DNA of 64,000 nt, taken from assembly GCF_017726655.1 (NCBI RefSeq), contig NZ_CP072309.1, positions 358,501 through 422,500 of the forward strand, written 5' to 3'. Within the stretch, counting starts at the first letter, position 1; every line of letters begins with the position of its first letter. This DNA is from Agrobacterium tumefaciens. GTDB lineage: Bacteria; Pseudomonadota; Alphaproteobacteria; Rhizobiales; Rhizobiaceae. Below, piece by piece: positions 22,342-50,015 of the stretch. The translations under genes and the position numbers were made by a program. Below the pieces are notes generated by a model that saw only the letters and a list, made by a program, of their open reading frames with translations, made no database searches and had not been told where the DNA came from.

Positions 22342-22358
22342 TTGGGGAGCAAAGACAT

Positions 22359-27238: not shown

Positions 27239-27490
27239 GTCTGATCCCCCCGATGAACCTCGGCGGAGCATCCGCAAGACCCGCCTCCTGCCGATCCTAA
27301 AAAACACCGGCCCTGAGGGGTATGCGGGCAAAAGGCGTGTGAAATCCATCAAAGGGAGGGGGTGTCGACATCAATGTCTACCCTCCCTACCCCCGAACCG
27401 GATCGACCATCGAAAGAGCTAGGTTTGAGACCTTGGCGACAAGAGGCCAGAAAGGGCCGACTCGGCGGCGAGTGGAGCTGTTGCGGGCGA

Positions 27491-28810: not shown

Positions 28811-28814
28811 CGCT

Positions 28815-30014: not shown

Positions 30015-30283
30015 GGCGCACCCTCGCTCATTCATCCACAGCCATGCCGCTACGATCAAAGGCGGATGGTTCGAGTGGCGGCTAGTGCGACATACTAAGA
30101 AGCCACGGAATGACAGTCAGTTGCATCTTAGGCTTAGCTGTTTCTTCTTTTGGGAGGTTTGCTTGGCTGAAACTATACGTTTGGCGTAAGAGGCGACCCG
30201 AAGGACGGTGTGGGGTCGTGCTGATCCAAGGGATATCAATGCCATATCGAGCGTGTCGGCGCCGGGCTGCGATGGGAAAATAA

Positions 30284-31516
30284 ATGAGGATCACTCTCCT
30301 TGGACAATTTGGCTCGGGCAATTCGGGCAATGACGGGTCGCTGGAAGCCATGCTCCTTTATCTGCGCAGGATGAGGCCCGATGCCGATCTCCTATGCATC
30401 TGCGCAAGTCCGACCGTCGTAAGCGCGAAGTTCAACATTCGCGCGATGGGTGCGGGGGGGCCTCCTCTGACCAATGCCTGGATGAGGCAATTGGACAAAC
30501 TACTCGGCAAGGTGCCTCGACGGCTCATGCTCTTGGTCAGCGCCCTCTTGAGTTTCGACAAGGCTGACCTGATGATCATTCCGGGGACCGGCATCCTCGA
30601 TGATTTTCAGGAAAGGTGGTTCGGCTGGCCCTTTGTCGTATTTTGCTGGTGTCTCGTCGCCCGCCTTCGTAACACGCGCATCGCCTTCGTCAGCATCGGC
30701 GCCGGTCCAATGAAAAGCCGTCTCAGCCGCTGGTTCCTGCGCTCGGCCGCACAGATGGCCTCCTATCGATCCTATCGGGACGATTTCTCGCTCAACTACA
30801 TGAAAATGATCGGTGTCGATGTGTCGCGAGACCACCGTTACCCCGATATCGCCTTTGATCTTCCCGTTCCCGTGCCCCACCGGCAAAACCAGGCCAACGG
30901 CGCTATGAACATAGGCGTCGGGGTGATGGACTATCGCGGCTGGCGCCACAATGATCCCGACTCCGTCAGGATCTACACGACCTACATCCACAAGCTCTCA
31001 CGGCTCGTGAGCTGGTTGATCGGTGAAGGACACCGCATCACCCTTTTGATGGGGGACATTACTGACAGGGTCGCCTGCGCGGATCTAATGTTTCTGCTGA
31101 CGGATATGCTCTCCGAGGACGAGCTGGCCCAGATCGACATCAGCTCGGCCGCAACGCTGCGCGATATCATGCAACAGATGGCGGCAATCGACCTTGCCGT
31201 CGTGTCGAGATATCATGGAGCGGTCTGCTCCCTGAAACTCGGAAATCCGACAATATCCATAGGTTATGCCCGCAAGTTCGATGATTTGATGACTGATTTC
31301 GACCAGGAGAGATTCTCCCGGCATATCGACACGTTCGAAGTCGAAGAGGTCATCGAGCTGGTGAAGGAGATACTCGCTGGAGCAGGAGCTGTGCGGCAGC
31401 GGATTGCCCGCGCCAATGATCGCTTCAAGCGCCAGCTCTCCGAGCAAGAAGCGCTCCTCGGTCGGGAATTTCTCTCAATAGACGCCGTCGCAACACCGCA
31501 GCGCGTTACGACTTAG
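30284..31516 (+). CDS. Polysaccharide pyruvyl transferase family protein
   Basis: The 410-residue protein fits the PF04230 family (WcaK/CsaB/ExoV type), which transfers pyruvate from PEP as a ketal onto sugar repeats. Landmarks are LLGQFGSGNSGNDGSLEAML at the N-terminus, then DLMIIPGTGILDDFQ, AFVSIGAGPMKSRLSRWFL, YRSYRDDFSLNYM, and the late VVSRYHGAVCSLKLGNPTISIGYARKFDDLM with the family His. Pyruvylation adds negative charge to rhizobial polysaccharides. The gene is divergent from the GT at 28815. Confidence 0.87.
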   Translation: MRITLLGQFGSGNSGNDGSLEAMLLYLRRMRPDADLLCICASPTVVSAKFNIRAMGAGGPPLTNAWMRQLDKLLGKVPRRLMLLVSALLSFDKADLMIIPGTGILDDFQERWFGWPFVVFCWCLVARLRNTRIAFVSIGAGPMKSRLSRWFLRSAAQMASYRSYRDDFSLNYMKMIGVDVSRDHRYPDIAFDLPVPVPHRQNQANGAMNIGVGVMDYRGWRHNDPDSVRIYTTYIHKLSRLVSWLIGEGHRITLLMGDITDRVACADLMFLLTDMLSEDELAQIDISSAATLRDIMQQMAAIDLAVVSRYHGAVCSLKLGNPTISIGYARKFDDLMTDFDQERFSRHIDTFEVEEVIELVKEILAGAGAVRQRIARANDRFKRQLSEQEALLGREFLSIDAVATPQRVTT

Positions 31517-31737
31517 ACGCAGCGTCTCGCAACATGATGCTGTCGACGTCACAGCCGAGCTCTTCATTATCCGAAGGGAGTAGACCGCACTTTTTCGGAC
31601 GGCCCTCAGCATACAGTCTTCAAACTGTTTACCCCCAGGGATCCGGCAGCCATCCCAACGGTCAGATGTCCAAGGTCCAGGTTCCACTCTAATTTGACGC
31701 GACCGTCGATTATCGGCGACGCTGTCGGAGCCCATCG

Positions 31738-33249
31738 ATGCACAAAGTCCGCCGCGCCTTTTTCATGGCAATGCTGGAACAACACCTCGGAATCGCGATC
31801 AATTTCGCTTTGATAGCGATCGTATCGAGATTGCTCTCGCCGGCGGAAGTTGGCTTTGCCGTCATCGGTTACGGGGTGACCTCGGTGATCTTCGCCTTTC
31901 GCGAATTCGTTTCTTCCGATTTCCTCATCCAGCTCGATGTCGTTGAACGCGACGACATTAACACGTCGCTCACATTGCTACTCCTGGTCAGCGGCTTTCT
32001 CGGGATCATTCTTTATCTGTGCGGACCGTATCTGGCGAATTTTTACCACCAGCCCGGTCTCCAGCACTATCTTATCGTCGCAATTGCCGCCGTCATGGCC
32101 GAAAGCCTGGGCATGCCGGCGTTCTCGATGCTGCGTCGGCGGCTGGCCTTCGGCACCATCGCACGCGTCCGAACCATCGGCCTCGTCGTTATGGCGGTCG
32201 TAACAATCTTCACTGCCAGCAAGGGAGGGGGCTTCGTCAGTTTCGCTCTCGGCCTGCTCGTCGGCAACAGCGTTGCGAGCGCCCTTGCCGCCTATGCCGA
32301 TCCGGCCCAGCGCAAAGCGCGCCTTTCACTCAAATCGTGGCGCCGCATGGCCGAATTCGGCCGCTTCAGGGGCGCCTCCACCATCGTTGACAAGCTATAC
32401 GAATCCCTGCCGCAGCTCGTCCTCGGGTTTGCCATGACCCCGACAGCGGTCGCCATCTACAATCGCGCCAACACCGTCTGCTCCATTCCCGACCGCATCT
32501 TCCTCTCGGCAATCTTCTCCTTCGCGTTTCCGGCGCTCGCCGCCGAAGTTCGCGAAGGTGGAGATGTCCGCAGGTCCTATCTGCGCGCCCTCAGCTACAT
32601 CACCGTGCTGTATTGGCCATCGCTGATCATGGTCGCCATTCTCGCCGATCCCATCGTGCGCCTCGCACTTGGAGACCAGTGGCTCGCCGCCGTCGCGATC
32701 ACACGCATTCTCGCACTTGCGTCGATCTTCTGGTTTCCAATGGTTTTGACAACGCCGTTGCTGATCGCTCTCAACGCCAACCGGGAGGCTTTTCTCGGCA
32801 ATTTCGTCTGCCGCAGCGTCTCGGCAATCGTGCTCTGTTCTGCCAGCTTTTTCGGCCTGACCGCGGTAGCGCTGAGCCAGTTCGTCACCCTGCCCTTCCA
32901 GATGCTTGTCGCCTTCTATCTGGTAAGACGCCATGCGCACTTCAAATTGCCCGAACTCTTTGCGGCCATCGGGCCGAGTGCAGCCGTGACCCTTGCCGCG
33001 ATTGCGGGACCGCTCGCCATATCCGCTTCGATCAGATTCCGCTTCGATTATTCCCTCGGCCAGGCTGGCAGCGCCATCCTTCTTTCGGTGGCCGGTTGGG
33101 CGGCCTGCCTGCTTCTTCTGCGTCACCCACTCGTCAGCGAGATACGTTCGACGCTCCATGCCTTCGCCGGACGTCCACGCAGGAACAGCAGACCGCCTGC
33201 GCCAGCTTCCATTTCAGACACCGTCGTTTCCGCAGCGGCCGAACCATGA
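31738..33249 (+). CDS. Wzx-type oligosaccharide flippase
   Basis: The 503-residue polytopic protein has about 12-14 helices and matches the MATE/MVF polysaccharide transporter superfamily. Examples are LLSPAEVGFAVIGYGVTSVIFAFREFVSSDFLIQ near the start, then FRGASTIVDKLYESLPQLVLGFAMTPTAVAIYNRANTV and RIFLSAIFSFAFPALAAE. It should flip the undecaprenyl-linked repeat unit to the periplasm. GGAG lies eight bases before ATG 31738. Its stop overlaps the next GT by ATGA. Confidence 0.9.
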   Translation: MHKVRRAFFMAMLEQHLGIAINFALIAIVSRLLSPAEVGFAVIGYGVTSVIFAFREFVSSDFLIQLDVVERDDINTSLTLLLLVSGFLGIILYLCGPYLANFYHQPGLQHYLIVAIAAVMAESLGMPAFSMLRRRLAFGTIARVRTIGLVVMAVVTIFTASKGGGFVSFALGLLVGNSVASALAAYADPAQRKARLSLKSWRRMAEFGRFRGASTIVDKLYESLPQLVLGFAMTPTAVAIYNRANTVCSIPDRIFLSAIFSFAFPALAAEVREGGDVRRSYLRALSYITVLYWPSLIMVAILADPIVRLALGDQWLAAVAITRILALASIFWFPMVLTTPLLIALNANREAFLGNFVCRSVSAIVLCSASFFGLTAVALSQFVTLPFQMLVAFYLVRRHAHFKLPELFAAIGPSAAVTLAAIAGPLAISASIRFRFDYSLGQAGSAILLSVAGWAACLLLLRHPLVSEIRSTLHAFAGRPRRNSRPPAPASISDTVVSAAAEP

Positions 33250-34205
33250 GCAGCATCGATATCGTCATTCCCAATTACAATTACGGTCGCTTCCTCGAGG
33301 GATGCGTACAAAGTGTCCTTGGCCAGAACATATCGGAAATGCGTATCCTTATTATCGACAACGCCTCCACGGACGACAGTGTTGCGATCGCCCGGTCCCT
33401 CGCTACCGCGAATCCCCTCATCGAGACGAGCCTGCACCCCATCAACCTCGGCGGTCACGCGTCTTTCAACGAAGGAATCGATTGGGCTCGGGCGGACTAT
33501 TTCGCCATCGTCTGCGCTGACGATATGCTGTCGCCTGAAGCACTCGCGCGCGCAATAGAGGCGCTCGACGACAATCCCGGCGCGCATATGGCGTACGGCC
33601 GGACCGCCTTCTTCCGTGACGACGCCGAGATAACCTCAAGCATTTGCAGCGATGCCGATGGTATGCAGCTTCATTGCGGCATCGACTTCATCGCCAGAAT
33701 TTGCGCGACGGGACGCAGCCCGGTGCCGGGTCCACTCGCCGTCACCAGAACGCATATTCAGCACCAAGCCGGTCATTACCGGCCAGCACTGCGCCATACC
33801 GACGATGTTGAGATGTGGATGCGGCTCGCGGTGCTGGGTGATATCGTCGAGCTGGATGCCGTGCAGAATTTCACGCGCATCCACGGTGCCAACCAATCGG
33901 CCACTCTTGACAACGTGCTCGGCTGGAACACCGAAATGGAGGCGGCGCTCGAAAGCTTCTTTGGCAATGAAGGGGCTTTCCTTGAGAATGCAGAAACGCT
34001 GCTAAAACGCGGTCGCGCGAGCCTGAGCGACCGCGCCTATTGGTGTGCCCTTTCCAATCTGCTGCGGCGCCGGCCCGGCGCGCGTGCCCTTCTCGCACAG
34101 GCTGTTCGCCTCAGACCCGCTTCAGCATTTCTGCCACCGGTAGGCTATCTTATGCGTCGACCAGACGCGTTTCATCGCATTCGCGCGGCAATCGCCCGCC
34201 GATAG
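33246..34205 (+). CDS. Glycosyltransferase family 2
   Basis: The 319-residue GT-A enzyme begins IDIVIPNYNYGRFLEGCVQSVLGQ, followed by ILIIDNASTDDSVAIARSLA, NLGGHASFNEGIDWARADYFAIVCADDMLSPEAL with the metal-binding Asp-Asp pair, and GHYRPALRHTDDVEMWMRLAVLGDIVELD. The donor sugar is not predictable. The ATGA overlap with the flippase stop fixes the start. It is convergent with the hybrid kinase gene 29 bases away. Confidence 0.9.
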   Translation: MSSIDIVIPNYNYGRFLEGCVQSVLGQNISEMRILIIDNASTDDSVAIARSLATANPLIETSLHPINLGGHASFNEGIDWARADYFAIVCADDMLSPEALARAIEALDDNPGAHMAYGRTAFFRDDAEITSSICSDADGMQLHCGIDFIARICATGRSPVPGPLAVTRTHIQHQAGHYRPALRHTDDVEMWMRLAVLGDIVELDAVQNFTRIHGANQSATLDNVLGWNTEMEAALESFFGNEGAFLENAETLLKRGRASLSDRAYWCALSNLLRRRPGARALLAQAVRLRPASAFLPPVGYLMRRPDAFHRIRAAIARR

Positions 34206-38199: not shown

Positions 38200-39603
38200 A
38201 TGCACTCTTTCGTCGACAATTTCGAAAACTCGGATCGACTGCGCCAGCGCTCCCGCAACCTCATACCGGGCGGTGCACATACCTACGCCAAGGGTGACGA
38301 CCAGTACCCTGTCCTGTCTCCCGGCTTCATTGAAAGGGGCTATGGCTGTCATGTCTGGGATGTCGATGGAAATGAATATATCGAATACGGCATGGGCAAC
38401 CGGGCCGTCGGCCTAGGCCATGCTTATGGCGACGTCGTTGAGGCGGCGCGCGCGGAACTATACCGCGGTTGCAACTTTACGCGCCCGTCAAAGATCGAGG
38501 TGGACTGCGCTTCAACCTTTCTCGACACGATCCAGACAGCCGAAATGGTTAAATTCTGCAAGAACGGTTCTGATGCGACATCCGCCGCGATACGACTTGC
38601 ACGGGCTGTTACAGGCCGCGACCTGATCGCGCGTTGCAGCGACCACCCGTTTTTCTCCACCGACGACTGGTTTATCGGAACAACGGAGATGAATGCAGGC
38701 ATTCCTCAGGCGATCCAGAATCTGGTCCTTGGCTTCACTTACAATGATCTTACGAGTGCGCGCAGTCTGCTTGACCGCTTTCCAGGCCGAATAGCCGCCT
38801 TCATTCTGGAGCCGTCGCGCGGTGAACCGCCTCGGGACCGGTTTCTTCACCAACTCCAGGAGCTATGTCACGAAAACGGCGCGCTTTTCATTCTCGACGA
38901 AATGATCACGGGGTTCCGCTGGGACGCGGGGGGAGCGCAAAAGACATACGATATCGTCCCAGACCTGTCCTGTTTCGGCAAAGCGCTGGGGAATGGCTTT
39001 TCGATTTCAGCGCTTGCTGGCAAGCGTGAGTTCATGGAACGAGGCGGTATCGATCAAACCGATGCCCCCCGTGTCTTCTTGCTTTCCACGACGCATGGCG
39101 CGGAAACGCACGCGATGGCGGCGGCCATCGCAACCATGCAGGTTTACACCCGGGAACCCGTGGTCCCACATCTGGTCCGACAGGGAAACGCGTTGCGTGC
39201 CGCCATCAGCCAGATCGCAATCGCGCACGGGCTCGATTCCTACTTCGGTATTCAGGGCCACTCCGCCTGTCTCAGCTACTTCACGCTCGATCAGACTGGC
39301 AAGCCGTCTCAGGCGTTCCGCTCGCTCTTTCTGCAGGAAACCATCCGACGCGGCATTCTCGCACCGTCTCTCGTTGTAAGCTATACGCATGGGGACGAGG
39401 ATATAGCCAGAACACTTGACGCCATAGACGGGGCGCTAGGGGTCTACCGAAAAGCGCTGGAATATGGCGTTGACAAATTCCTGACGGGACGCCCGTCGGA
39501 TGTTGTATTTCGACGTTTCAACGGCGGATCGCAGCATCAGGCCAGCCATGGGCTGAAGATGGCCGACATGGCCGAGTTATCGGAAAGCATCCGAAAGCCT
39601 TAA
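38200..39603 (+). CDS. GSAM-like class III PLP aminotransferase/aminomutase
   Basis: The 467-residue protein resembles glutamate-1-semialdehyde 2,1-aminomutase: LIPGGAHTYAKGDDQYP, HVWDVDGNEYIEYGMGNRAVGLGHAY, MVKFCKNGSDATSAAIRLARA, ILDEMITGFRW and the PLP-lysine motif CFGKALGNGF (Lys 261). It is not the heme-pathway enzyme by context. It opens a sugar-nucleotide cassette, and similar enzymes occur in surface-polysaccharide loci. It probably installs or moves an amino group on a sugar-derived or acyl intermediate. It has an extra C-terminal tail (VFRRFNGGSQHQASHGLKMADM) not typical of HemL. Confidence 0.85.
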   Translation: MHSFVDNFENSDRLRQRSRNLIPGGAHTYAKGDDQYPVLSPGFIERGYGCHVWDVDGNEYIEYGMGNRAVGLGHAYGDVVEAARAELYRGCNFTRPSKIEVDCASTFLDTIQTAEMVKFCKNGSDATSAAIRLARAVTGRDLIARCSDHPFFSTDDWFIGTTEMNAGIPQAIQNLVLGFTYNDLTSARSLLDRFPGRIAAFILEPSRGEPPRDRFLHQLQELCHENGALFILDEMITGFRWDAGGAQKTYDIVPDLSCFGKALGNGFSISALAGKREFMERGGIDQTDAPRVFLLSTTHGAETHAMAAAIATMQVYTREPVVPHLVRQGNALRAAISQIAIAHGLDSYFGIQGHSACLSYFTLDQTGKPSQAFRSLFLQETIRRGILAPSLVVSYTHGDEDIARTLDAIDGALGVYRKALEYGVDKFLTGRPSDVVFRRFNGGSQHQASHGLKMADMAELSESIRKP

Positions 39604-39720
39604 CCGGTCGGGGCACCTAAGCGGTTCGCATTATCGCTACAGCCGCTTTGCGCGGTGCATCGATCTCGCCTGACCAGATACGCTCGTTGTAATCGACAAT
39701 GGATCTTGAGGGGAAGTTTC

Positions 39721-40791
39721 ATGCACGTTCTCGTCACCGGGCATCGCGGATATATCGGCTCCGTCATGGTACCCATCCTGCGCAAGGCGGGCCACAAAGT
39801 TTACGGCTATGACACCGAGTTCTACCACCGCTGCGCTTATGCCCCAGGCGGACCTTTGCCGCAGGTGCCCGGCGTGTGCAAGGATATCCGCGATATTACG
39901 CCTGCGGATATGGAAGGTTTCGACGCTGTCATTCATCTTGCTGCCCTGTCAAACGACCCGCTGAGCAATCTCAATCCGGAAATCACCTATGAGATCAATT
40001 ATCGCGGTAGCGTTCGGGCAGCGAGAGCCGCAAAGCAGGCAGGCGTCAAGCGTTTCATCTTCGCCTCGTCGTGCAGCAACTACGGTGCCGCTGGCGAAGG
40101 GCTGGTCAATGAATCGGCAGAGCTCAAACCTGTAACGGCTTATGGCACCTCCAAGGTCTTGGCGGAGCGGGAAATTGCCAGCCTCGCGAGCCCCGGCTTC
40201 TCGCCCGTCTATATGCGCCCGGCAACGGCATATGGCCTTTCGCCCATGCTCCGTTTCGATATCGTACTCAACAACCTGACGGCCTGGGCGGTGACGGAAG
40301 GACTGATCTTCCTGAAATCCGACGGATCGCCATGGCGTCCAATCGTTCACATCGAGGATATTTCCTTAGCCTTTCTGGCAGCGCTTGAAGCCCCAACGGA
40401 TGTCATCCACAATCAGGCGTTCAACGTCGGACAGGATGCGCACAACTATCAGATCAGAGAGATCGCCGAAATCGTCGCCCTCACGGTCCCTGGATGCCGG
40501 CTGCAATATGCCAGCGACGCGAGCCCTGATACCCGCTCCTACCGTGTCGATTTCGGCAAGATCGCCCGTGCGCTTCCGGCGTTCAAACCGACGTGGACGG
40601 CCGCTGCAGGTGCCGAGCAACTCTACCGGGCCTACAAGAGCTCCGGCCTGACAATGGTCGAATTCGAGGGCCCGCACTATCAGCGGATCGGCCAACTCCA
40701 GAAGCTGATCGGCGATAAGGATATCGACAGCAACCTGCGCCGCCCCATGGCCGCGCCGCGCCAAAGCGTGGGTATCGCAGCATCGGTGTGA
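39721..40791 (+). CDS. NAD(P)-dependent sugar epimerase/dehydratase (extended SDR)
   Basis: The 356-residue protein has the SDR nucleotide motif [27 protein letters not shown], and the catalytic triad [10 protein letters not shown] ... [10 protein letters not shown] (Ser, Tyr-x3-Lys). The pattern resembles sugar-nucleotide epimerases/reductases that act on NDP-4-keto sugars. It has an unusually Asp/Asn-poor C-terminal substrate domain ending [17 protein letters not shown] 39721 starts exactly at the Rossmann strand; the upstream in-frame codons are discarded. It lies 13 bases before the DUF4910 gene. Confidence 0.88.
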
Positions 40792-40804
40792 AGGGGAGGA
40801 GGCG

Positions 40805-42148
40805 ATGGGCAGGATGGAGCCTGGTGCCGAACTGACAGCCGATGCAATCCGGGAAACAAGTATTGGCCAGACTATTCACGATCTCGCCTCCCGCCTCTTT
40901 CCGATCTGTCGCAGCATCACGGGCAAAGGTGTTTGCGAGACGATCGATATCCTTAAAGACTATATCGATATCGAGCAGCACGCTGTTCCGAGCGGGACGC
41001 GGGTTTTCGACTGGACGGTGCCGCCGGAGTGGGTCGTCCGGGACGCCTATGTGAAAAACGCGACGGGACGCAAGGTGATCGATTTCCAAATGTCGAACCT
41101 GCATCTCATGAACTACAGTATCCCTCAACGCCGCGTGATGCCGCTCGCCGAACTGCGAGCACATATTTATACCCTTCCGGAAAAGCCCGACCTCATTCCC
41201 TACAAAACAGCATATTACACGGATGCCTGGGGCTTTTGCATGTCGCATAATGACTTCCTCAAGCTCGAGGTAGGCGACTATGAAGTCGTCATCGACACCG
41301 AAAAGACGTCAGGCAATCTGTATTACGGCGAATATCGGCATGTCGGACAAAGCACCAAGGAAGTGCTTCTCTTCGCGCATATCTGTCATCCATCGCTCGC
41401 AAACGACAATTGTTCCGGCCTCGCACTGCTCACATGTCTTGCTGCCGGCCTAAAAGGCAGAAACACATATTACAGCTACAGGTTCGTCTTTGCGCCCGGA
41501 ACCATCGGCTCCCTGTCATGGCTTGCACGGAACGAAGACGGGATATCGAACATTGCGCATGGTCTTGTGGTTTCCTGCATTGGCGACGGCGGCGGGCCGA
41601 ACTACAAGCGTAGCCGCCGGGGAGACGCAGTGATCGACCGGATCGCCGCCTGCACCCGCTGCGGCGAGGATCGCAAACCTCTGGCAATCGCCGACTTCAT
41701 TCCCTATGGCTATGACGAGCGTCAATTCTGTTCGCCGGGCTTCAATCTGCCGGTCGGACTGCTGCAGAGAAGCTCTTTCGGGACCTTTTCCGAATATCAC
41801 ACCTCGGCCGACAATCTCGACTTCATCAGGCCCGAACACCTTAACTCATCCTTTTGGATGACCATGGACATGATCGAGGCTCTCGAAGGCAATTGGACGC
41901 CGTTGAACCTACGGCCGAAAGGTGAGCCACAGCTCGGAAAATACGGGCTTTTCCCTGCGATTGGCGGCCACAAGACGAACGACGACCGCACCATGGCCTA
42001 TCTCTGGATACTAAACTACGCCGATGGAGATAACTCGCTGCTCGATATCGCGGAAAGGTCCAAAATCCCCTTCGTCGATATTGCGAGTGCGGCCGGCAGG
42101 CTGCTTGAGGCGGGCCTTGTATCGAATCTGGGTTTCCTGTCGCGGTAG
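40805..42148 (+). CDS. DUF4910 aminopeptidase-like protein with winged-helix tail
   Basis: The 447-residue protein has an N-terminal DUF2172/DUF4910-type region (IGQTIHDLASRLFPICRSITGKGV, then PSGTRVFDWTVPPEW). A zinc-peptidase-like core follows: FAHICHPSLANDNCSGLALL (His 192, His 195, Asp 201) and SEYHTSADNLDFI (His 332), resembling M28 ligand motifs. The last 90 residues (WILNYADGDNSLLDIAERSKIPFVDIASAAGRLLEAGLV) look like a winged helix. Ligands appear intact, so it may hydrolyse an amide in the cassette's product or an acyl-protected intermediate. GGGGAGGAGG precedes the ATG. Confidence 0.8.
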   Translation: MGRMEPGAELTADAIRETSIGQTIHDLASRLFPICRSITGKGVCETIDILKDYIDIEQHAVPSGTRVFDWTVPPEWVVRDAYVKNATGRKVIDFQMSNLHLMNYSIPQRRVMPLAELRAHIYTLPEKPDLIPYKTAYYTDAWGFCMSHNDFLKLEVGDYEVVIDTEKTSGNLYYGEYRHVGQSTKEVLLFAHICHPSLANDNCSGLALLTCLAAGLKGRNTYYSYRFVFAPGTIGSLSWLARNEDGISNIAHGLVVSCIGDGGGPNYKRSRRGDAVIDRIAACTRCGEDRKPLAIADFIPYGYDERQFCSPGFNLPVGLLQRSSFGTFSEYHTSADNLDFIRPEHLNSSFWMTMDMIEALEGNWTPLNLRPKGEPQLGKYGLFPAIGGHKTNDDRTMAYLWILNYADGDNSLLDIAERSKIPFVDIASAAGRLLEAGLVSNLGFLSR

Positions 42149-42152
42149 ACCT

Positions 42153-42680
42153 TCATTGCCAGGCCGCCCAACCGAGGTCCTTTTCCGAGATGACAGAGGG
42201 AGGCGCAGGCCATTCAACACCGATCGCGGGTTCGTCATGGCGTATCCCCGCTGCACTTGCTTGGGCATAGGGCACCGAAATCAGATAAGACACGGCAACA
42301 TCGTCGCTGAGCGACTGGAAACCATGGGCAAAACCCTCGGGAATGTAGAACTGCACGCCGTTTTCGGCCGACAGGACCGTGCCAACCCATTGCAGATAGG
42401 TGGGTGAGCCGCGACGCAGATCGACAGCAACATCCCATATCGCACCTTTGACGCAGGAAACCAGCTTAGTCTCCTGATGCGGCGGTCGCTGGAAATGCAA
42501 CCCTCGAATGGTGTGTTTGAGCTTTGATATGGAAAGGCTGTGCTGACTGAAGTCCGATACCAGCGCGTTACTCTCAAATTCGCGTTTGCAGAACGTCCTC
42601 GCAAAAGAGCCTCGGCTGTCATGCACAGGCACCGTTTTGACGACCCAAAGCCCCTCGATTTTCGTCTTCTCAAACAGCAT
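42153..42680 (-). CDS. RmlC/RfbC-like NDP-sugar 3,5-epimerase
   Basis: The 175-residue cupin-fold protein has the dTDP-4-dehydrorhamnose 3,5-epimerase signature: RGSFARTFC near residue 24, KHTIRGLHFQRPPHQETKLVSCVKGAIWDVAVDLRRGSPTY with catalytic His, and FYIPEGFAHGFQSLSDDVAVSYLIS. It should epimerise a 4-keto-6-deoxy sugar nucleotide at C3 and/or C5. ATG 42680 follows AGGAGCGCCGA. It is convergent with the DUF4910 gene (four-base gap) and divergent from the C-methyltransferase. RmlABD are not in the window. Confidence 0.9.
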   Translation of the reverse strand: MLFEKTKIEGLWVVKTVPVHDSRGSFARTFCKREFESNALVSDFSQHSLSISKLKHTIRGLHFQRPPHQETKLVSCVKGAIWDVAVDLRRGSPTYLQWVGTVLSAENGVQFYIPEGFAHGFQSLSDDVAVSYLISVPYAQASAAGIRHDEPAIGVEWPAPPSVISEKDLGWAAWQ

Positions 42681-42987
42681 TCGGCGCTCCTGATGCGACC
42701 CCGTATTCAAGAAGAGTTTGCCGCCATTTCAGCGGGCTACGGAATACATCCACAGGTATCACCATACCCTGAAGGCCGGCGGGCAATTAAGTCACCCTTT
42801 CGGTTGCGGAAACCCGGCGCCGGAGGCACATTCCAGAGGATTACAACGTAAATCTACGGCTTATGGATGACGTTTTCGAGCCGAATGCAGTATCGTCACC
42901 CACCCTGATCCATAGTATTTTTTCCAGCTAATAAAAGAATTTCTGAAATTCGCTCGAAAACACTGCGATGGAATCAGGGGACGTCAG
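42681..42987. other. 307-base divergent promoter region in the sugar cassette
   Basis: No gene is seen. It separates the leftward RfbC-like gene from the rightward C-methyltransferase gene, so it must hold both promoters. The half nearest the methyltransferase is AT-rich (42900-42960). Confidence 0.5.
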
Positions 42988-44280
42988 ATGAATAATGAGG
43001 CAGTTTTTTCCGCAAGACTGAGCTCGACGCATCACGTCGGGCTTTGCCGCCTTTGTAGCGCGCCATTGGTGCATACCTTCGTCGATCTTGGAATGTCTCC
43101 GCCCTGCGAAAGCTTCGTCGCAGCTGATGCCGCCAATGACGTCGAGCCGTTTTATCCGCTCCATGCATTCGTGTGCGACGAATGCTTCCTCGTCCAGCTT
43201 CAGGAATATGTAGCGCCGGAGAGTATTTTCACGGAGTACGCGTATTTCTCTTCGTTCTCGGACAGTTGGGTCGCTCACGCGAAGCGGTACTGCGATATGG
43301 TCATCGAGCGCTTCGCGCTGGACCAATCAAGTTTCGTTGTCGAGCTTGCCAGCAACGATGGTTACCTGCTGCAACATTTCCTGACCAGCAACATCCCGAT
43401 GCTCGGAATTGAACCGGCCGTGAACGTCGCGAAGGTGGCAATCGGGAAAGGCATTCCGACACTGACGGAATTTTTCAACGAGGCACTGGCAACCGATATG
43501 GCGGCCAGGGGACAAAAAGCGGATCTCATCATCGGCAACAATGTTCTTGCCCAGGTGCCTGACATCAACGATTTCGTTGCCGGCATGAAAGTCCTGCTCA
43601 AGCCTGAAGGCGTGATCACCCTCGAATTCCCCCATATCGAAAAGCTTATCGCGGAAAACCAGTTCGACACCATCTATCACGAGCACTTTTCCTACTTTTC
43701 ACTGCTGACGATAGAAAAAATGGCCCGCCGTCATGGACTGAAGGTCTTCGATGTCGAAGAAATCCCAACACATGGCGGTTCGCTGCGGGTCTTTTTCTCG
43801 CACGAGGACAGCAGGTTTCACCGTGAAGCCCGCGTCGATAGGCTCCTGGAGCGGGAATTGAATGCCGGGCTCGACAGAATAGAGACCTATACGGCCTTCG
43901 CCGAAGCCGTGCGTCAGACCAAGCGAAACCTCCTGTCTTTCCTCATCCGTCTCAAGGAGATGCGCAAATCCATCTGCGCCTATGGCGCGCCGGGAAAGGG
44001 CAATACGCTGCTGAATTATTGCGGCATCGGCACCGATTTCATCGATTTTGCGGTTGATCGCAATCCCTACAAACATGGACGCCTCACGCCGGGAATGCAT
44101 ATCCCAATCCGGCCTGTCAGCGAAATCGAGCGCATGAAGCCGGATTACGTCCTCATTCTTCCCTGGAACCTGAAGAATGAGATCGTTGCACAAATGCACG
44201 ACATCAAAGACTGGGGCGGGAAATTCATCGTTCCAATTCCAGACATATCCATCATTGATCCGAAGGAGTTGGCACAATGA
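42988..44280 (+). CDS. NDP-hexose C-methyltransferase (TylC-III/Methyltransf_13-14 type)
   Basis: The 430-residue protein has the full three-part architecture. First is a zinc-binding N-terminal domain (CRLCSAPLVHTFVDLG, then FVCDECFLVQL). Next is a SAM Rossmann core (VVELASNDGYLLQHFL, LGIEPAVNVAKVA, LIIGNNVLAQVPDI). A Methyltransf_14-like C-terminal domain (FDTIYHEHFSYFSLLTI, AYGAPGKGNTLLNYCGIG) completes it. Known relatives add a methyl at C3 of NDP-4-keto sugars, giving branched sugars. The stop overlaps the next gene in ATGA, so the two are coupled. Confidence 0.9.
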   Translation: MNNEAVFSARLSSTHHVGLCRLCSAPLVHTFVDLGMSPPCESFVAADAANDVEPFYPLHAFVCDECFLVQLQEYVAPESIFTEYAYFSSFSDSWVAHAKRYCDMVIERFALDQSSFVVELASNDGYLLQHFLTSNIPMLGIEPAVNVAKVAIGKGIPTLTEFFNEALATDMAARGQKADLIIGNNVLAQVPDINDFVAGMKVLLKPEGVITLEFPHIEKLIAENQFDTIYHEHFSYFSLLTIEKMARRHGLKVFDVEEIPTHGGSLRVFFSHEDSRFHREARVDRLLERELNAGLDRIETYTAFAEAVRQTKRNLLSFLIRLKEMRKSICAYGAPGKGNTLLNYCGIGTDFIDFAVDRNPYKHGRLTPGMHIPIRPVSEIERMKPDYVLILPWNLKNEIVAQMHDIKDWGGKFIVPIPDISIIDPKELAQ

Positions 44281-45089
44281 AGGTCGTCTTGTTCTGCGGT
44301 GGCAGGGGTACCCGCATCAGGGAATATTCTGAAAGCGTCCCTAAACCACTGATCCCGCTCGGCTCTCAGCCGATCATGCGACACGTCATGCAATATTACG
44401 CCCGTTTCGGGCACGAAGACTTCATCCTCTGCCTCGGCTACAAGGCGCATGTCATAAAAGAATTCTTCCTGAACAGCCGGCCGGAAAGTTATGCCGATTG
44501 CGTCATATCAAGTCCCGGACGCGTGGAATTGCTCGAAGAGCTGCCGAGAGATTGGCGCGTATCGCTGATCGATACGGGCATATGGCGCAATATTGGCGAA
44601 CGTCTCTGGGCCGTACGTCGTCATCTCAAAGGCGAGAAGATGTTTCTCGCCAATTACAGCGACGGCCTGACCGACGTCGATCTCGACGACATGATTGCCC
44701 AATTCGAAAAGAGCGACAAGCTCGCCTGCTTCTTGGCTGTTAGGCCGCCTCTCACCTACCATCTGGCGGAGATCGACGAGAGCGGAAGGGTGCGGGAATT
44801 TCGGTCGTCGGAAACATCCGAGATGTGGATCAACGGCGGCTACTTCCTGATGCGTCCGGAAATTTTCGACTACATGCGCGAGGGCGAAGAACTCGTGCTG
44901 GAACCGTTTTCCAGGCTGATTTCTGAAGACAAATTGATGGCCTACAAACATGAGGGCTTCTGGCGATCTATGGATACGCTGCGCGACTGGCAGACGTTGG
45001 AGGCGATGGTGGAACGCGGCGACATGCCATGGATCGGCGACGGTGCGTCAATGGCACGCAAATCGCCAAACACGAAGCAACTGCCATGA
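44277..45089 (+). CDS. RfbF-like glucose-1-phosphate cytidylyltransferase family protein
   Basis: The 270-residue nucleotidyltransferase begins VVLFCGGRGTRIREYSESVPKPLIPLGSQPIMRHVMQYYARFGHEDFILCLGYKA, with the GGxGTR/KP activation motif. The body resembles RfbF (SLIDTGIWRNIGERLWAVRRHL, FLANYSDGLTDVDL, WINGGYFLMRPEIFDYM, FWRSMDTLRDWQTLE). Its product is likely CDP-hexose, but the exact nucleotide cannot be read from sequence. It is translationally coupled to genes on both sides (ATGA at each junction). Confidence 0.87.
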   Translation: MKVVLFCGGRGTRIREYSESVPKPLIPLGSQPIMRHVMQYYARFGHEDFILCLGYKAHVIKEFFLNSRPESYADCVISSPGRVELLEELPRDWRVSLIDTGIWRNIGERLWAVRRHLKGEKMFLANYSDGLTDVDLDDMIAQFEKSDKLACFLAVRPPLTYHLAEIDESGRVREFRSSETSEMWINGGYFLMRPEIFDYMREGEELVLEPFSRLISEDKLMAYKHEGFWRSMDTLRDWQTLEAMVERGDMPWIGDGASMARKSPNTKQLP

Positions 45090-45739
45090 AAAACATATCC
45101 CTCGCCTCCGCCGGTGATCGCCTGTCGATTCTATGTCTTGGAGCTCACTCCGACGACATTGAGATCGGCGTCGGAGGCACGGTCCTAAGTCTGCTTTCGA
45201 AGGGTGTGTTGCTTGATGTCCATTGGTGCGTGCTCAGCGCCGGCTACGAGCGCGCCCTGGAGGCACGCAGTTCTGCGGAAGCTTTTCTGGCAAAAGCAGC
45301 ATCCTATTCAATTGAACTTGCATCGTTTCAGGACAGCTACTTCCCCTCGCAGAGCCGTGAGATCAAGTCATGGCTTCTGACATTGCGCGACAAAGTCAGT
45401 CCCGACGTCATATTCACGCATAGCCGCGAGGACGCGCACCAGGATCACCGCGAGATCAACAGGATCACATCCAACATCTTCAGAAATCACCTGATCATGG
45501 AATACGAAATCCCGAAATGGGACGGCGATTTCGGCAGACGAAACGCTTACGTGCCATTGAGCGAAGACGCGATGAATATGAAGGTCGAGCTTCTCCTGGA
45601 GCACTTTGGAACACAGAGATCCAAGGACTGGTTCGATGCGGATACATTTCGCGGCCTGGCGCGGCTGCGGGGAATGGAATGCCGTGCGCCAACACGTTTT
45701 GCGGAGGCCTTTACCGTCAGGAAACTGACGCTCGCCTGA
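45086..45739 (+). CDS. PIG-L family deacetylase
   Basis: The 217-residue protein has the LmbE/PIG-L zinc-hydrolase signatures: ILCLGAHSDDIEIGVGGTV with the H-x-D-D metal site, and VIFTHSREDAHQDHREINRIT supplying a further His. Members remove N-acyl groups from amino sugars or cysteine conjugates. The ATG overlaps the previous stop, fixing the start against a longer in-frame option. It closes the coupled methyltransferase-RfbF-PIG-L unit. Confidence 0.9.
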   Translation: MKNISLASAGDRLSILCLGAHSDDIEIGVGGTVLSLLSKGVLLDVHWCVLSAGYERALEARSSAEAFLAKAASYSIELASFQDSYFPSQSREIKSWLLTLRDKVSPDVIFTHSREDAHQDHREINRITSNIFRNHLIMEYEIPKWDGDFGRRNAYVPLSEDAMNMKVELLLEHFGTQRSKDWFDADTFRGLARLRGMECRAPTRFAEAFTVRKLTLA

Positions 45740-46589: not shown

Positions 46590-48752
46590 ATGATCCAGTC
46601 GTCATCATCTCCGGGGGAGCAGGAAGGTATTTCCCGCTTCCTATCCATCCTGCGGGAGCGGCGCAGGGCCGTCTTCATCTGCTTTCTCGCCAGTTTCGCA
46701 ATCGCGGCAATCGGCTATGCGCGAACCCCGATCCGTTACAAGGCCGAGGCGACCCTTGCCCTTGACGTCCGCAAGCTTCAGGCGCTTCCCACCGAATCCG
46801 TCGTCTCTCCGCTGCCTCAGGAAAGCCCGGTGCTTCGAACCGAACTTGATATCATCGGGTCGAGGTCCATGGCCGAACGGGTTCTTGTCATCCTGCAAAA
46901 AGATAGGCTGCTGGAAGGGCGTCAGCCCAACCAAGCCCGGACGGACACGGACGCGATCATGCTTGGCAACGACGCCGAGACATCGAAAATGATCGATACC
47001 CTCATGACCAACGTTCGCGTGATGAATGATGGCCGGTCTTATACGATTTACATATCCTATTATGCCAACGATCCGGCGCTTGCCGCGAAAGTCGCCAATG
47101 CTTTCGGGGCAGCCTATATCGACTATCAGATCGACCTCCAGACGACGGCAACACGGCGCGTCAGCGCGTGGCTTGGGGAGCGGCTGGTGAGTCTGCGAAC
47201 AGAACTGGAAGAGTCCGAACGGCAGGCGTCGCAATTTCGCGAAAAATCCGGATTGATAGACACAGGCGGTCTTCCCCTGCAGGCACAGCGTCTTTCAAGC
47301 CTGAACGTCGAGTTGACGACGCTACAGGCCAAGCTGGCGGGGTCAAGGGCACGCCTGGCCACAGCGCTCGAACTTCAGAAAAGCGGCAATGGCCTTGGGA
47401 TAACCGAAGTTCTTTCGTCGCCATCGATCCAGCAGCTAAGGGGCGAGCAGGCAAAGGTCATCAGAGCCATTGCGCAGATCGATGAAAGCGGTGCAACCAT
47501 GAGCCCGGAGCGACCGCAATTATCCTCCCAGCTCAGTTCACTCAACAAGCAGATCGATTCGGAGATCGCGCAGATCATTGCTGCCTTGCGCAACGAGATC
47601 GAGGTCAGTGAAAAACAGCGGCAGGAGGTCGAGGCGAGCCTCATCGATGTGCAACGCGCGATTTCCACGACAGATATGGCAATGGTTCAATCCGGACAAC
47701 TCGATCGGGAGGCAGCAGCGAACCGCTCGATCTACGAGACATATCTGGCGCGCTACAAGCAGACCATCGAACAGGACGGCATCGCAACCGCCGAGGCGCG
47801 GATCATATCGAGCGCCATGCCGTCCCGAAAACCGACCAGTCCTGACAAGCGCCTGTGGGGTTTGGTTGCACTCCTTCTCGGCTGCGGCAGCGGGTTGGCA
47901 GCAGCTTTTACCTTGAACTTCACAGACCGGTCTTTCGGCTCCGTCGCGTCGCTTCAACAAAAAACCGGACTGAACGTTATCGGGCGCATCCCACGCTTTT
48001 CCTTCGGAGAGTTCCAGAACAAGTCTGGGACATTCAGTAACGCCGCGGCGGACTTCTACAGCGCTTTCGCGGATCTTCAGACCCACCTGCAATTGGCAGA
48101 GAGCAAGGCAAAAGTGATCGCCTTCACGTCTTCGGCCGATGGGGAAGGCAAGACCTTCGTGATCGCCAACCTTGCCCGATCTCTTGCGATGAGCGGCGTG
48201 AAGCTTTTGCTGATCGATGCCAATCTGCGAAACCCCGCTCTTGGAAGCGAGTTCGACGTGGGATCGGCCTCGCATGTCGCCCATGCGGTAAGCCGTGAGG
48301 TGTCCCTCGATAGCATCGTACAACGCGATCAGGCCTCGGGGGTCGACATCATCGTCGCCGAGAAAAACGATCTGCCGCCAAATCTTGTTCTTGGAAGCAA
48401 GCGCTTCGCCAGCCTGATTGCGGAGGCGCGGCAGAGATACGAACTGATCTTAATCGAGGCCCCATCCGCGGCCCATGACCTCGACCTGTTGCGGATCGCC
48501 ACTCTGTCCGACACGGTTTCCTTTGTGGTCCGGCAGGACGTCACCGATGGCACGGGAATGAAAAACGCGGTCATCAGGCTACGGGTCGCGGGCCGACCGG
48601 TCGCGGGTGTCATCCTCAACGCAATACGACGCCCGCGACAGCGCCACGCCGCGGTCTGGCCAAGGTTTTTCCGAGACTGGAATAGTCATTTCAAGCTGCG
48701 GAAACGGCCGACCAGCCTGCGGCCGCCAGCTGTCGTTCATAACGAGAGGTGA
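46590..48752 (+). CDS. Wzz/Wzc-like polysaccharide copolymerase with degenerate BY-kinase domain
   Basis: The 720-residue protein has a Wzz domain anchored by helices near residues 24-46 and 420-443, with a coiled-coil-rich periplasmic part between them. The C-terminal cytoplasmic domain has Walker A SSADGEGKT (about 514-522). Walker A' is LLLIDANLRNP, with Asn replacing the second Asp, and Walker B is LILIEAPS, with Glu for Asp. The final 60 residues contain no Tyr cluster. It probably controls chain length and export like ExoP of Sinorhizobium, but kinase activity is doubtful. It starts the export operon with the ExoF-like gene. Confidence 0.88.
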   Translation: MIQSSSSPGEQEGISRFLSILRERRRAVFICFLASFAIAAIGYARTPIRYKAEATLALDVRKLQALPTESVVSPLPQESPVLRTELDIIGSRSMAERVLVILQKDRLLEGRQPNQARTDTDAIMLGNDAETSKMIDTLMTNVRVMNDGRSYTIYISYYANDPALAAKVANAFGAAYIDYQIDLQTTATRRVSAWLGERLVSLRTELEESERQASQFREKSGLIDTGGLPLQAQRLSSLNVELTTLQAKLAGSRARLATALELQKSGNGLGITEVLSSPSIQQLRGEQAKVIRAIAQIDESGATMSPERPQLSSQLSSLNKQIDSEIAQIIAALRNEIEVSEKQRQEVEASLIDVQRAISTTDMAMVQSGQLDREAAANRSIYETYLARYKQTIEQDGIATAEARIISSAMPSRKPTSPDKRLWGLVALLLGCGSGLAAAFTLNFTDRSFGSVASLQQKTGLNVIGRIPRFSFGEFQNKSGTFSNAAADFYSAFADLQTHLQLAESKAKVIAFTSSADGEGKTFVIANLARSLAMSGVKLLLIDANLRNPALGSEFDVGSASHVAHAVSREVSLDSIVQRDQASGVDIIVAEKNDLPPNLVLGSKRFASLIAEARQRYELILIEAPSAAHDLDLLRIATLSDTVSFVVRQDVTDGTGMKNAVIRLRVAGRPVAGVILNAIRRPRQRHAAVWPRFFRDWNSHFKLRKRPTSLRPPAVVHNER

Positions 48753-48755
48753 AAC

Positions 48756-50015
48756 ATGCGCGCCGCGAAAAAGTCCAAAGCCTTTTCACTGCTGATCGCC
48801 TGCACCACTTTTCTGTCTCTCGCCGTTTGCAAGTTGCCGGCCGCTGCAGAGGGAACGGACTACAAGGTCGCTGCCGGCGACGTCTTGACGATCTCAGTCT
48901 ATGGTGACGACGGTCTGACCGGCCTCTTCCCTGTCAGTGCGGATGGAACGATCGGTTACCCGCTTCTTGGCAACGTCAACGTTGTCGACCAGACGGTGAA
49001 CGAGATCGGGGTGCGGATCAGCCGCGAGCTGGCAAGCCATGTGGCAAACCGCTCCGTTGCCGTTGCGGTCAAGGAATATGCTCCGATCTTCGTTGTTGGC
49101 GACGTCCAGAAACCGGGAAAATATGAATACCGTCCCGGCATGATCGTGCTTGAACTCTTCGCGTTGGGCGGGGGATTGCGCGAGTCGAACGCACAGAGGG
49201 ATACTTCGGGCATACAGTTGATTGCCGCCCAGCAGGAATATGAAGACATGTCGATGCAATTACTGTCGCAGGATATCCGGCGCGTTCGGCTGGAAGCGGA
49301 GCTTAACGACACGGAATTCGAATATAAGGGCGATGAAATCGGGCTTGTTCGGGATCGCGCCGCATTGGAGAAGATCGTGGACTCTGAAAAAAGCCTCTTC
49401 CGCCTTCGCCTCTCGGCGCAGCAGGACGAAAGGACCAACCTCGAGGTCCAGCGACAGAACTTCATTCAGGAAATCGACACGCTTCAGAAAAGCAACGTCA
49501 TGCGCAGCCAGCAACTTGAACTGCTTGACATGGACGTCAACGCCTCGAAGGAACTTGTCACGCGCGGCGCAGCCTCCGAAGCCGCCCTGAGAGAGCGCAA
49601 ACGCGAACTGCTGTCCATGAACCAGCAGGTGCTGGAATCCACGTCGTTCCTGGCGCGTGCGCAACAAAACAAGGGCGAGGTAGAGCGGCGTATCCTGGAG
49701 TTGAAGAGCAAAAGGCACAATGACGCCGCGACCGAATTGCGGGAGACTTCCCTGGACATCATGCGCCTGAAAAAGAAACTGGCCTTCAGCCTTCAATCCA
49801 TGGCGGAGATCAGCTCGACTGCGCGGCGGGTTTCCAGCCTCGAGGACATGATCCAGACCAATTTCTTCATCGTGCGTCAGATTGCCGGCACTTATCGCGA
49901 AATAGCTGCGGACGAGCATACTCAGGTCCGGGCGGGAGACGTCGTTCGCGTCCGCCTGTCGGTATCACGCGGAGACCCGGTTTCGGAGCCCATCGTCACA
50001 GGAAGCGTCAACTAG
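48756..50015 (+). CDS. ExoF-like polysaccharide export protein
   Basis: The 419-residue product has a signal peptide (FSLLIACTTFLSLAVCKLPAAAEG). A poly_export (Wza-like) domain follows: YKVAAGDVLTISVYGDDGLTGLFPVSADGTIGYPLLGNV. Then come an SLBB-like segment (FVVGDVQKPGKYEYRPGMIVLELFALGGGL) and a long coiled coil (about 150-370), followed by VRAGDVVRVRLSVS. The length and the coiled coil match ExoF of rhizobia rather than enteric Wza, which is shorter and lacks the coil. It lies three bases after the copolymerase gene. It is periplasmic or outer-membrane associated. Confidence 0.88.
   Translation: MRAAKKSKAFSLLIACTTFLSLAVCKLPAAAEGTDYKVAAGDVLTISVYGDDGLTGLFPVSADGTIGYPLLGNVNVVDQTVNEIGVRISRELASHVANRSVAVAVKEYAPIFVVGDVQKPGKYEYRPGMIVLELFALGGGLRESNAQRDTSGIQLIAAQQEYEDMSMQLLSQDIRRVRLEAELNDTEFEYKGDEIGLVRDRAALEKIVDSEKSLFRLRLSAQQDERTNLEVQRQNFIQEIDTLQKSNVMRSQQLELLDMDVNASKELVTRGAASEAALRERKRELLSMNQQVLESTSFLARAQQNKGEVERRILELKSKRHNDAATELRETSLDIMRLKKKLAFSLQSMAEISSTARRVSSLEDMIQTNFFIVRQIAGTYREIAADEHTQVRAGDVVRVRLSVSRGDPVSEPIVTGSVN

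What the first reader, a model, noticed from the sequence alone, without database searches (positions are those of the whole stretch)
38200..45739. Self-contained sugar cassette with GSAM-type enzyme, DUF4910 peptidase-like protein and PIG-L deacetylase
Seven genes (GSAM-like PLP enzyme, SDR, DUF4910 zinc-peptidase-like, RfbC-like epimerase, C-methyltransferase, RfbF-like nucleotidyltransferase, PIG-L deacetylase) sit together without any glycosyltransferase. The last three on the right are coupled by ATGA overlaps. Family knowledge supports an activated, C-methylated, amino-bearing sugar. I infer a pathway in which two amide hydrolases act on acylated intermediates. I recall no described pathway with this exact set.
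Basis: partly seen in the sequence, partly recalled or inferred. Interest (0 to 1): 0.75.

Follow-up and report, generated by a model that had tools for sequence, protein, structure and literature searches.

The report
Conserved rare-sugar cassette in polysaccharide locus
Seven neighbouring genes in a soil bacterium form a set that recurs in distant bacteria and probably makes an unusual activated sugar for a surface polysaccharide, using an enzyme combination whose chemistry has not been worked out.

Summary
The seven genes are real, at the stated coordinates, with both ATGA overlaps. Corrections: RmlC lies on the opposite strand; the block sits inside a Wzx/Wzc-type polysaccharide locus that has glycosyltransferases; the 'GSAM' lacks hallmarks of true glutamate-semialdehyde aminomutase; the DUF4910 protein keeps a zinc triad but not the M28 peptidase catalytic residues.

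In 199 genomes of the order, close relatives of five of the genes (aminotransferase, DUF4910, C-methyltransferase, nucleotidyltransferase, PIG-L) occur together in the same 12 genomes (7 genera). Of 80 aminotransferase-anchored loci, 56 carry these five and 50 all seven, including loci in Cyanobacteria and Chloroflexota.

It was seen in part before: a 2014 paper tied DUF4910 to modified-sugar loci, and a 2006 Brucella table lists a matching gene row. My searches found no worked-out pathway.

Best reading: a CDP-activated 3-C-methyl amino sugar, made by cytidylyl transfer, C4 oxidation, epimerisation, C-methylation and class III transamination, with PIG-L and DUF4910 doing amide chemistry. Every reaction is inferred from families. 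New variant of a known kind.

The parts
38200..39603 (+). Class III (GSAM-fold) aminotransferase, annotated as glutamate-1-semialdehyde 2,1-aminomutase but lacking HemL hallmarks
   Evidence: PF00202; NF004856 777 bits over cut-off 486, HemL TIGR00713 215 under 527; alignment with E. coli HemL; Lys261 kept in 69 of 69 relatives
39721..40791 (+). SDR, proposed C4 oxidase of the nucleotide sugar
   Evidence: PF01370; best solved match 6vo6, E 1.3e-30; SSCS-x-YG motif in 42 of 43 relatives, one gap; YxxxK in 43 of 43
40805..42148 (+). DUF4910 protein (DUF4910 + DUF2172 + HTH_47), M28-fold with one-zinc triad
   Evidence: 3k9t, E 2.4e-135; residue counts in 64 relatives
42153..42710 (-). RmlC-type 3,5-epimerase, opposite strand
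   Evidence: PF00908; TIGR01221 168 bits over cut-off 156; His72 and Tyr142 in 50 of 50 relatives
42988..44280 (+). Sugar C-methyltransferase, proposed C3
   Evidence: D-mycarose 3-C-methyltransferase 4rv9, E 1.2e-86; zinc Cys x4 in 63 of 63 relatives, Tyr230/Glu232/His233 in 62 of 63, one gap
44277..45089 (+). RfbF-like sugar-1-phosphate nucleotidyltransferase, proposed CTP user; ATGA overlap with the gene before
   Evidence: 1tzf, E 6.4e-49; TIGR02623 210 bits, under its cut-off of 300
45086..45739 (+). PIG-L/LmbE-type deacetylase; ATGA overlap with the gene before
   Evidence: PF02585; His21, Asp24 and His121 in 54 of 54 relatives; overlap
27491..34205 (.). Context, not part of the cassette: apiosidase-like hydrolase, glycosyltransferase, pyruvyltransferase, Wzx-like flippase, GT2
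46590..50015 (+). Context, not part of the cassette: Wzc-like chain-length/kinase protein and Wza-like export protein

Best explanation
The seven genes are one biosynthetic module that makes a CDP-activated, 3-C-methylated amino sugar, which the surrounding Wzx/Wzc-type machinery builds into a surface polysaccharide. Proposed order: (1) the RfbF-like enzyme joins CTP to a hexose-1-phosphate; (2) the SDR oxidises C4 to a ketone (four planctomycete loci have a CDP-glucose 4,6-dehydratase instead); (3) RmlC epimerises next to the ketone; (4) the methyltransferase adds a methyl group at C3; (5) the GSAM-like enzyme transaminates a carbonyl, probably C4; (6) PIG-L removes an acetyl group and/or the one-zinc DUF4910 protein forms or transfers an amide on the amino sugar. 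Shown here: families, conserved active-site residues, co-occurrence, locus context. Inferred: the nucleotide, the sugar, the order and every reaction. Step 6 is the weakest.
For: Families and residues. Co-occurrence: the same 12 of 199 genomes carry cassette-type relatives of five genes. Conservation: core five in 56 of 80 loci and all seven in 50 of 80; core five in 8 of 10 loci outside Alphaproteobacteria. Divergence of the five core proteins runs in parallel over 37 loci (r 0.83-0.92, 0 of 999 permutations as high for each of ten pairs). CDP link: CDP-glucose 4,6-dehydratase next to the aminotransferase in four planctomycete loci without the SDR. Polysaccharide setting.
Against: The window genome has no CDP-glucose 4,6-dehydratase over cut-off, so CDP use rests on an RfbF-like enzyme that itself misses the RfbF cut-off. 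Known nucleotide-ketosugar aminotransferases are of the DegT family (recalled), not class III. No N-acyltransferase is in the cassette, so what PIG-L and DUF4910 act on is unclear. The parts are not inseparable: L035 and L044 lack NT and PIG-L nearby, and six fetched genomes with aminotransferase relatives at 43-60% identity lack some or all of the partners. The four dehydratase loci are of one phylum. Parallel divergence may reflect shared descent only.
Confidence: 0.5

Rival explanations
1. The GSAM-like enzyme makes a small amino or amino-acid-like acyl part, which DUF4910 transfers onto the C-methylated sugar after PIG-L exposes the acceptor amine. The aminotransferase then does not act on the sugar nucleotide.
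For: Class III aminotransferases usually act on small aldehydes, amino acids and primary amines (recalled; the solved relatives fit). The DUF4910 authors suggested transacylation to an amino sugar. DUF4910 also sits near NeuB, formyltransferase and N-acetyltransferase genes in other loci.
Against: The HemL stretch NSPVR, whose Arg binds the substrate carboxylate (recalled), reads HTYAK here, and HemL loop residues are missing. L069 shows dehydratase, aminotransferase and CMT side by side, as for one sugar route, though that contig is cut just before them.
Confidence: 0.25
2. Two separate sugars: NT, SDR, RmlC and CMT make a C-methyl sugar, while the aminotransferase, DUF4910 and PIG-L modify a second amino sugar of the same polymer.
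For: The aminotransferase is found without NT and PIG-L (L035, L044), and DUF4910 without the aminotransferase in 6 of 19 genomes.
Against: The split does not follow these lines: CMT stays with the aminotransferase in L035, L044 and L069, and NT, CMT and PIG-L lie within 4 kb in all 12 core genomes.
Confidence: 0.17
3. A chance grouping of common sugar genes.
For: Some NT relative occurs in 60 and some CMT relative in 54 of 199 genomes at E 1e-30, so the families as such are common.
Against: The cassette-type versions separate cleanly (NT 64% identity or more in 12 genomes, next 44%; CMT 64% or more, next 56%; PIG-L 56% or more, next 29%) and lie in the same 12 genomes (about 2e-18 by genome and 5e-10 by genus for one pair of sets).
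Confidence: 0.03

Closest known systems
CA_C2195 / DUF4910 polysaccharide neighbourhoods (Das et al. 2014, PMC4000134; sections 6 and 10 read; other passages)
   Same: Same protein family end to end, same zinc triad and same Ser/Pro replacements; sugar epimerase, nucleotidyltransferase and methylase nearby; role in modified surface carbohydrate proposed.
   Different: Its worked example (C. acetobutylicum) lies beside a NeuB gene; the passages read name no GSAM-like enzyme and no PIG-L (0 hits for 'aminomutase' and 'PIG-L' in the main text). Its supplementary tables were not seen.
Brucella suis/melitensis gene row BRA0433-BRA0439 / BMEII0827-0834 (PMC1413539, passages only)
   Same: GSAM, 'UDP-glucose 4-epimerase', a conserved hypothetical at the DUF4910 position, RmlC on the other strand, methyltransferase, glucose-1-phosphate cytidylyltransferase, in this order.
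   Different: One more hypothetical gene between GSAM and the epimerase (in the place of the apiosidase-like gene of other loci; my inference); PIG-L is not in the rows I saw; given as typing markers, without a pathway.
Cj1427 C4-dehydrogenase with RmlC-type epimerases, C. jejuni heptose modification (PMC10680097, passages)
   Same: The SDR's best solved relative is 6vo6 (that 6vo6 is Cj1427 is recalled), an enzyme that oxidises C4 without dehydration, followed by epimerases.
   Different: GDP-heptose there; nucleotide and sugar unknown here; motif SSCSNYG here against TNSGYG in 6vo6.
3-C-methyl (amino) sugar pathways of antibiotics: MtmC, TcaB9, vancosamine type (solved relatives; pathways recalled)
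   Same: C-methyltransferase of the same family plus RmlC-type epimerase and an amination step.
   Different: dTDP sugars and DegT-type aminotransferases there (recalled).
PIG-L plus HemL-like pair in a putative aminoglycoside cluster (PMC8770908, passages)
   Same: PIG-L deacetylase and class III aminotransferases in one amino-sugar cluster.
   Different: Cyclitol antibiotic genes there; no DUF4910 or C-methyltransferase of this kind in the rows seen.

Membership tests
Glutamate-1-semialdehyde aminomutase (HemL) | Score over the HemL model cut-off (TIGR00713, 527 bits) | tested here: not met
   215 bits; it does pass NF004856, a different NCBIfam model also named GSAM
Glutamate-1-semialdehyde aminomutase (HemL) | NSPVR motif, gating loop and late Glu (roles recalled) | tested here: not met
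   HTYAK in place of NSPVR, nine loop residues and a four-residue stretch with the Glu missing against E. coli HemL
Class III aminotransferase | Aminotran_3 domain and PLP lysine | tested here: met
   PF00202; Lys261 in 69 of 69 relatives
M28 metallopeptidase | Catalytic Asp and Glu, two zinc ions | tested here: not met
   Ser197 (63 of 64, one Gly) and Pro231 (64 of 64) at those positions; zinc count itself not testable
CA_C2195 / DUF4910 family | DUF4910+DUF2172+HTH_47 with zinc residues His, Asp, His | tested here: met
   H195 and D201 in 64 of 64, H332 in 63 of 64 with one gap
RfbF glucose-1-phosphate cytidylyltransferase | Score over TIGR02623 cut-off (300 bits) | tested here: not met
   210 bits; best solved match is RfbF 1tzf
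RfbF glucose-1-phosphate cytidylyltransferase | Use of CTP and glucose-1-phosphate | not testable with these tools
   Needs enzyme assay
CDP-glucose 4,6-dehydratase (RfbG) pathway | RfbG gene in the genome | tested here: not met
   No match over cut-off in the own genome, best 104 against 278 bits; present in planctomycete loci (L085 455 bits)
NDP-sugar 4,6-dehydratase (SDR) | Acidic pair after the active-site Thr/Ser (recalled) | tested here: not met
   SSCS in 42 of 43 relatives, one gap
Sugar 3-C-methyltransferase (MtmC/TcaB9) | Zinc-binding, methyltransferase and C-terminal domains with the conserved Cys and Tyr/Glu/His | tested here: met
PIG-L/LmbE deacetylase | Family domain and zinc His/Asp/His | tested here: met
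   PF02585 58 bits over 28; residues in 54 of 54; BshB1 model not reached (47 against 183)
RmlC 3,5-epimerase | Score over TIGR01221 cut-off; His and Tyr | tested here: met
   168 over 156; His72 and Tyr142 in 50 of 50; substrate untested

The most novel reading that the evidence does not exclude
A phylum-crossing, unworked route to a CDP-activated C-methyl amino sugar in which a class III (GSAM-fold) aminotransferase acts directly on a nucleotide ketosugar, and a one-zinc M28-fold protein (DUF4910) makes or transfers an amide on the sugar instead of cutting one. It would give DUF4910, a family with a solved structure and no known activity, its first reaction.
Probability: 0.3. Interest if true: 0.72.

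Novelty: new variant of a known kind. Interest (0 to 1): 0.52.

Why it matters
It turns an orphan family (DUF4910, solved structure 3k9t, no activity in the papers my searches found) and a commonly mislabelled 'aminomutase' into parts of one testable pathway. The set is kept in many rhizobia and relatives and in loci of Cyanobacteria, Chloroflexota and, with a different first step, Planctomycetota, so its product is probably a widespread but unidentified surface sugar. The label 'glutamate-1-semialdehyde 2,1-aminomutase' on this gene is likely wrong and should not be read as a haem gene.

Tried and rejected
Chance grouping: rejected by co-occurrence. Haem role of the GSAM gene: rejected by the HemL cut-off and missing hallmarks; alphaproteobacteria normally use ALA synthase (recalled). 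DUF4910 as an ordinary peptidase or amide hydrolase: not supported. CDP-glucose 4,6-dehydratase elsewhere in this genome: none over cut-off. Apiosidase-like gene as an obligate partner: relatives in 39 of 80 loci, but the family is in 10 of 199 genomes, 2 of them among the 12 core genomes (hypergeometric 0.11), so it is a local companion. The 2OG oxygenase of other phyla is not found in this genome (a search without positive control). Fusions of the aminotransferase: the best 120 of 7999 scored relatives show one Pfam domain each. Literature: ten searches in an open-licence library, nine of them aimed at this set, gave the 2014 DUF4910 paper and the 2006 Brucella table but no worked-out pathway; papers outside that library were not searched.
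Full report
Observation. The seven ORFs are present at 38200-45739 with the stated families. Six are on the plus strand. RmlC (42153-42710) is on the minus strand, convergent with DUF4910 (4 bp apart) and divergent from the methyltransferase (277 bp apart). ATGA overlaps join methyltransferase to nucleotidyltransferase (44277) and nucleotidyltransferase to PIG-L (45086). The genome has 5.08 Mb in two contigs; the nearest named relative of the aminotransferase is 94% identical, from Agrobacterium tumefaciens.

Setting. The cassette lies inside polymer machinery. To the left are three glycosyltransferases (19823-23534), a possible polymerase (24110-25546, no Pfam or NCBIfam hit, my guess), a DUF218 protein, a WecA-like transferase (26090-27352, under the WecA cut-off), an apiosidase-like hydrolase (27491-28837), another glycosyltransferase, a pyruvyltransferase, a Wzx-like flippase and a GT2. 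To the right are a Wzc-like protein, a Wza-like export protein, a GDP-mannose 4,6-dehydratase over its cut-off and a GDP-fucose-synthase-like protein just under its cut-off.

Co-occurrence in the order. Five searches ran on the same sample of 199 genomes. DUF4910 (PF16254) is in 19. The aminotransferase at E 1e-100 is in 13, all among the 19. PIG-L relatives at 56% identity or more are in 12, the next at 29%. NT relatives at 64% or more are in 12, the next at 44%. CMT relatives at 64% or more are in 12, the next at 56%. These three sets of 12 are the same genomes and all lie in the 13; they fall in 7 genera and 4 families. For one pair of sets the chance is about 2e-18 by genome and 5e-10 by genus; this ignores kinship, and I set the identity cuts after seeing the gaps. 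In 10 of 12 genomes the five lie on one contig within 22 kb. In G031 the aminotransferase ends 262 bases before a contig end, so the split may be assembly. In G167 they lie on three contigs, at least 22 kb from the ends. In G053 the aminotransferase has one internal stop. The 13th genome, G155, has aminotransferase and DUF4910 on different contigs and no cassette-type NT, CMT or PIG-L.

Loci. With my bit-score cuts, of 80: DUF4910 73, CMT 67, SDR 66, NT 65, RmlC 64, PIG-L 61; core five 56; all seven 50. Of the 62 with at least 18 kb: core five 49, all seven 47. Where all of the core five are present they span 6.0-13.2 kb, median 8.8. By ORF clusters, which miss members, 21 of 80 loci show exactly the window's order and strands, reversed RmlC included. 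Ten loci lie outside Alphaproteobacteria by record title (five planctomycete, two Chloroflexota, two cyanobacterial, one deltaproteobacterial): 8 of 10 have the core five and 4 of 10 all seven. The 80 are chosen for likeness to one gene and are mostly rhizobia, so they show conservation, not frequency. In 37 loci with all five as ORFs, pairwise distances of the five proteins run in parallel (r 0.83-0.92; 0 of 999 permutations as high for each of ten pairs); shared descent alone could give this.

Results against one indivisible unit. Seven further genomes had aminotransferase hits in the samples of 398 (phylum) and 385 (class) genomes; six were fetched, G728 was not. G547, G911 and G858 show none of the cassette genes in 19.9 kb; G816 shows DUF4910, G702 DUF4910 and RmlC, G464 all but PIG-L with an NT of only 36% identity and an SDR of 46%. 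L035 and L044 have aminotransferase, CMT and DUF4910 but no NT, PIG-L or SDR. Six of 19 genomes have DUF4910 without the aminotransferase at my cut. Around DUF4910 in eight loci (those six genomes plus G155 and G816), 50 chosen ORFs include NeuB (4), epimerase (4), formyltransferase (2) and aminoglycoside N-acetyltransferase (2) families (25 of 67 families shown), so DUF4910 also serves other amino-sugar routes.

The aminotransferase. It passes NCBIfam NF004856, a model named GSAM, but scores 215 against 527 for HemL. Against E. coli HemL (33% identity) the motif NSPVR reads HTYAK, nine loop residues are missing and a four-residue stretch with a Glu is missing; the roles of these in HemL are recalled. 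The PLP lysine is kept in 69 of 69. It is a class III aminotransferase of unknown substrate; the aminomutase name is not earned.

DUF4910. The match to CA_C2195 (3k9t) covers residues 18-436, E 2.4e-135. Zinc residues H195 and D201 are in 64 of 64 relatives, H332 in 63 of 64 with one gap; the positions of the M28 catalytic Asp and Glu are Ser (63 of 64) and Pro (64 of 64), as the 2014 paper describes for its protein (section 6). That paper proposed a role in modified carbohydrate biosynthesis, with transacylation to an amino sugar as one option and an amidase reaction with unusual residues as another (section 10).

The other enzymes. CMT matches D-mycarose 3-C-methyltransferase over nearly its whole length. 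NT matches glucose-1-phosphate cytidylyltransferase 1tzf but misses the equivalog cut-off. RmlC passes its cut-off. PIG-L keeps its zinc residues in 54 of 54. The SDR's best solved match is 6vo6, which I recall to be Cj1427, called a C4-dehydrogenase of GDP-heptose in PMC10680097 (passages). Its SSCS motif lacks the acidic pair of dehydratases (the pair is recalled). In four planctomycete loci the SDR is absent and a CDP-glucose-4,6-dehydratase-type gene sits beside the aminotransferase (the L085 copy passes TIGR02622). No locus of 80 has both; the overlap statistic is 6e-4, but all four are of one phylum. This suggests that either enzyme can supply a 4-keto sugar and that the nucleotide is CDP.

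What it most likely does. I infer a CDP-activated 3-C-methyl amino sugar (confidence 0.5); the amide steps are the least certain. PIG-L with HemL-like class III enzymes also occurs in a putative aminoglycoside cluster (PMC8770908, passages), and a GSAM-named gene in a Legionella O-antigen region (PMC3694923, passages), so such enzymes in sugar loci are not new.

What is known. The closest printed record is a Brucella typing table (PMC1413539, passages): BRA0433-BRA0439 give GSAM, a hypothetical, an epimerase, a hypothetical at the DUF4910 position, RmlC on the other strand, a methyltransferase and the cytidylyltransferase; PIG-L is not in the rows I saw. Seven of seven Brucella-named loci in my set carry all seven genes. 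I found no study of the pathway in the searches listed under Tried and rejected. It is a widespread, uncharacterised sugar pathway: a new variant of a known kind, not a new kind.

Noticed in passing
window 37256-37984 and 45825-46535: Two LuxR-type regulators of one BLAST cluster flank the cassette on both sides; relatives of that cluster are in 25 of 80 loci.
   Followed up: no
window 34235-36616 (-): Hybrid histidine kinase with two receiver domains and a C-terminal LuxR-type domain next to the locus.
   Followed up: no
window 27491-28837 (-); L057 11329-12684: Apiosidase-like (PF13204) hydrolase in the polysaccharide locus; in many relatives it sits between aminotransferase and SDR (39 of 80 loci hold a relative). 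Apiosidases act on a branched sugar (recalled), so it may trim the C-methyl sugar polymer; not obligate.
   Followed up: partly
L098 9005-9949, L081 8759-9685, L085 12701-13657; relatives in 11 of 80 loci: A protein without Pfam hit in cassettes of other phyla, with HxD...H pattern; its model (pLDDT 72) matches Fe(II)/2-oxoglutarate oxygenases, top E 4e-7 but TM-scores of 0.31-0.52. Not found in this genome.
   Followed up: partly
G167 contigs C5, C14, C25 (L116-L118): One genome keeps the core five dispersed over three contigs, at least 22 kb from contig ends.
   Followed up: partly
L035 and L044: Variant locus with aminotransferase, CMT and DUF4910 followed by a classical short-chain dehydrogenase-like gene, a glycosidase-like gene and glycosyltransferase-like genes (labels by eye).
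   Followed up: no
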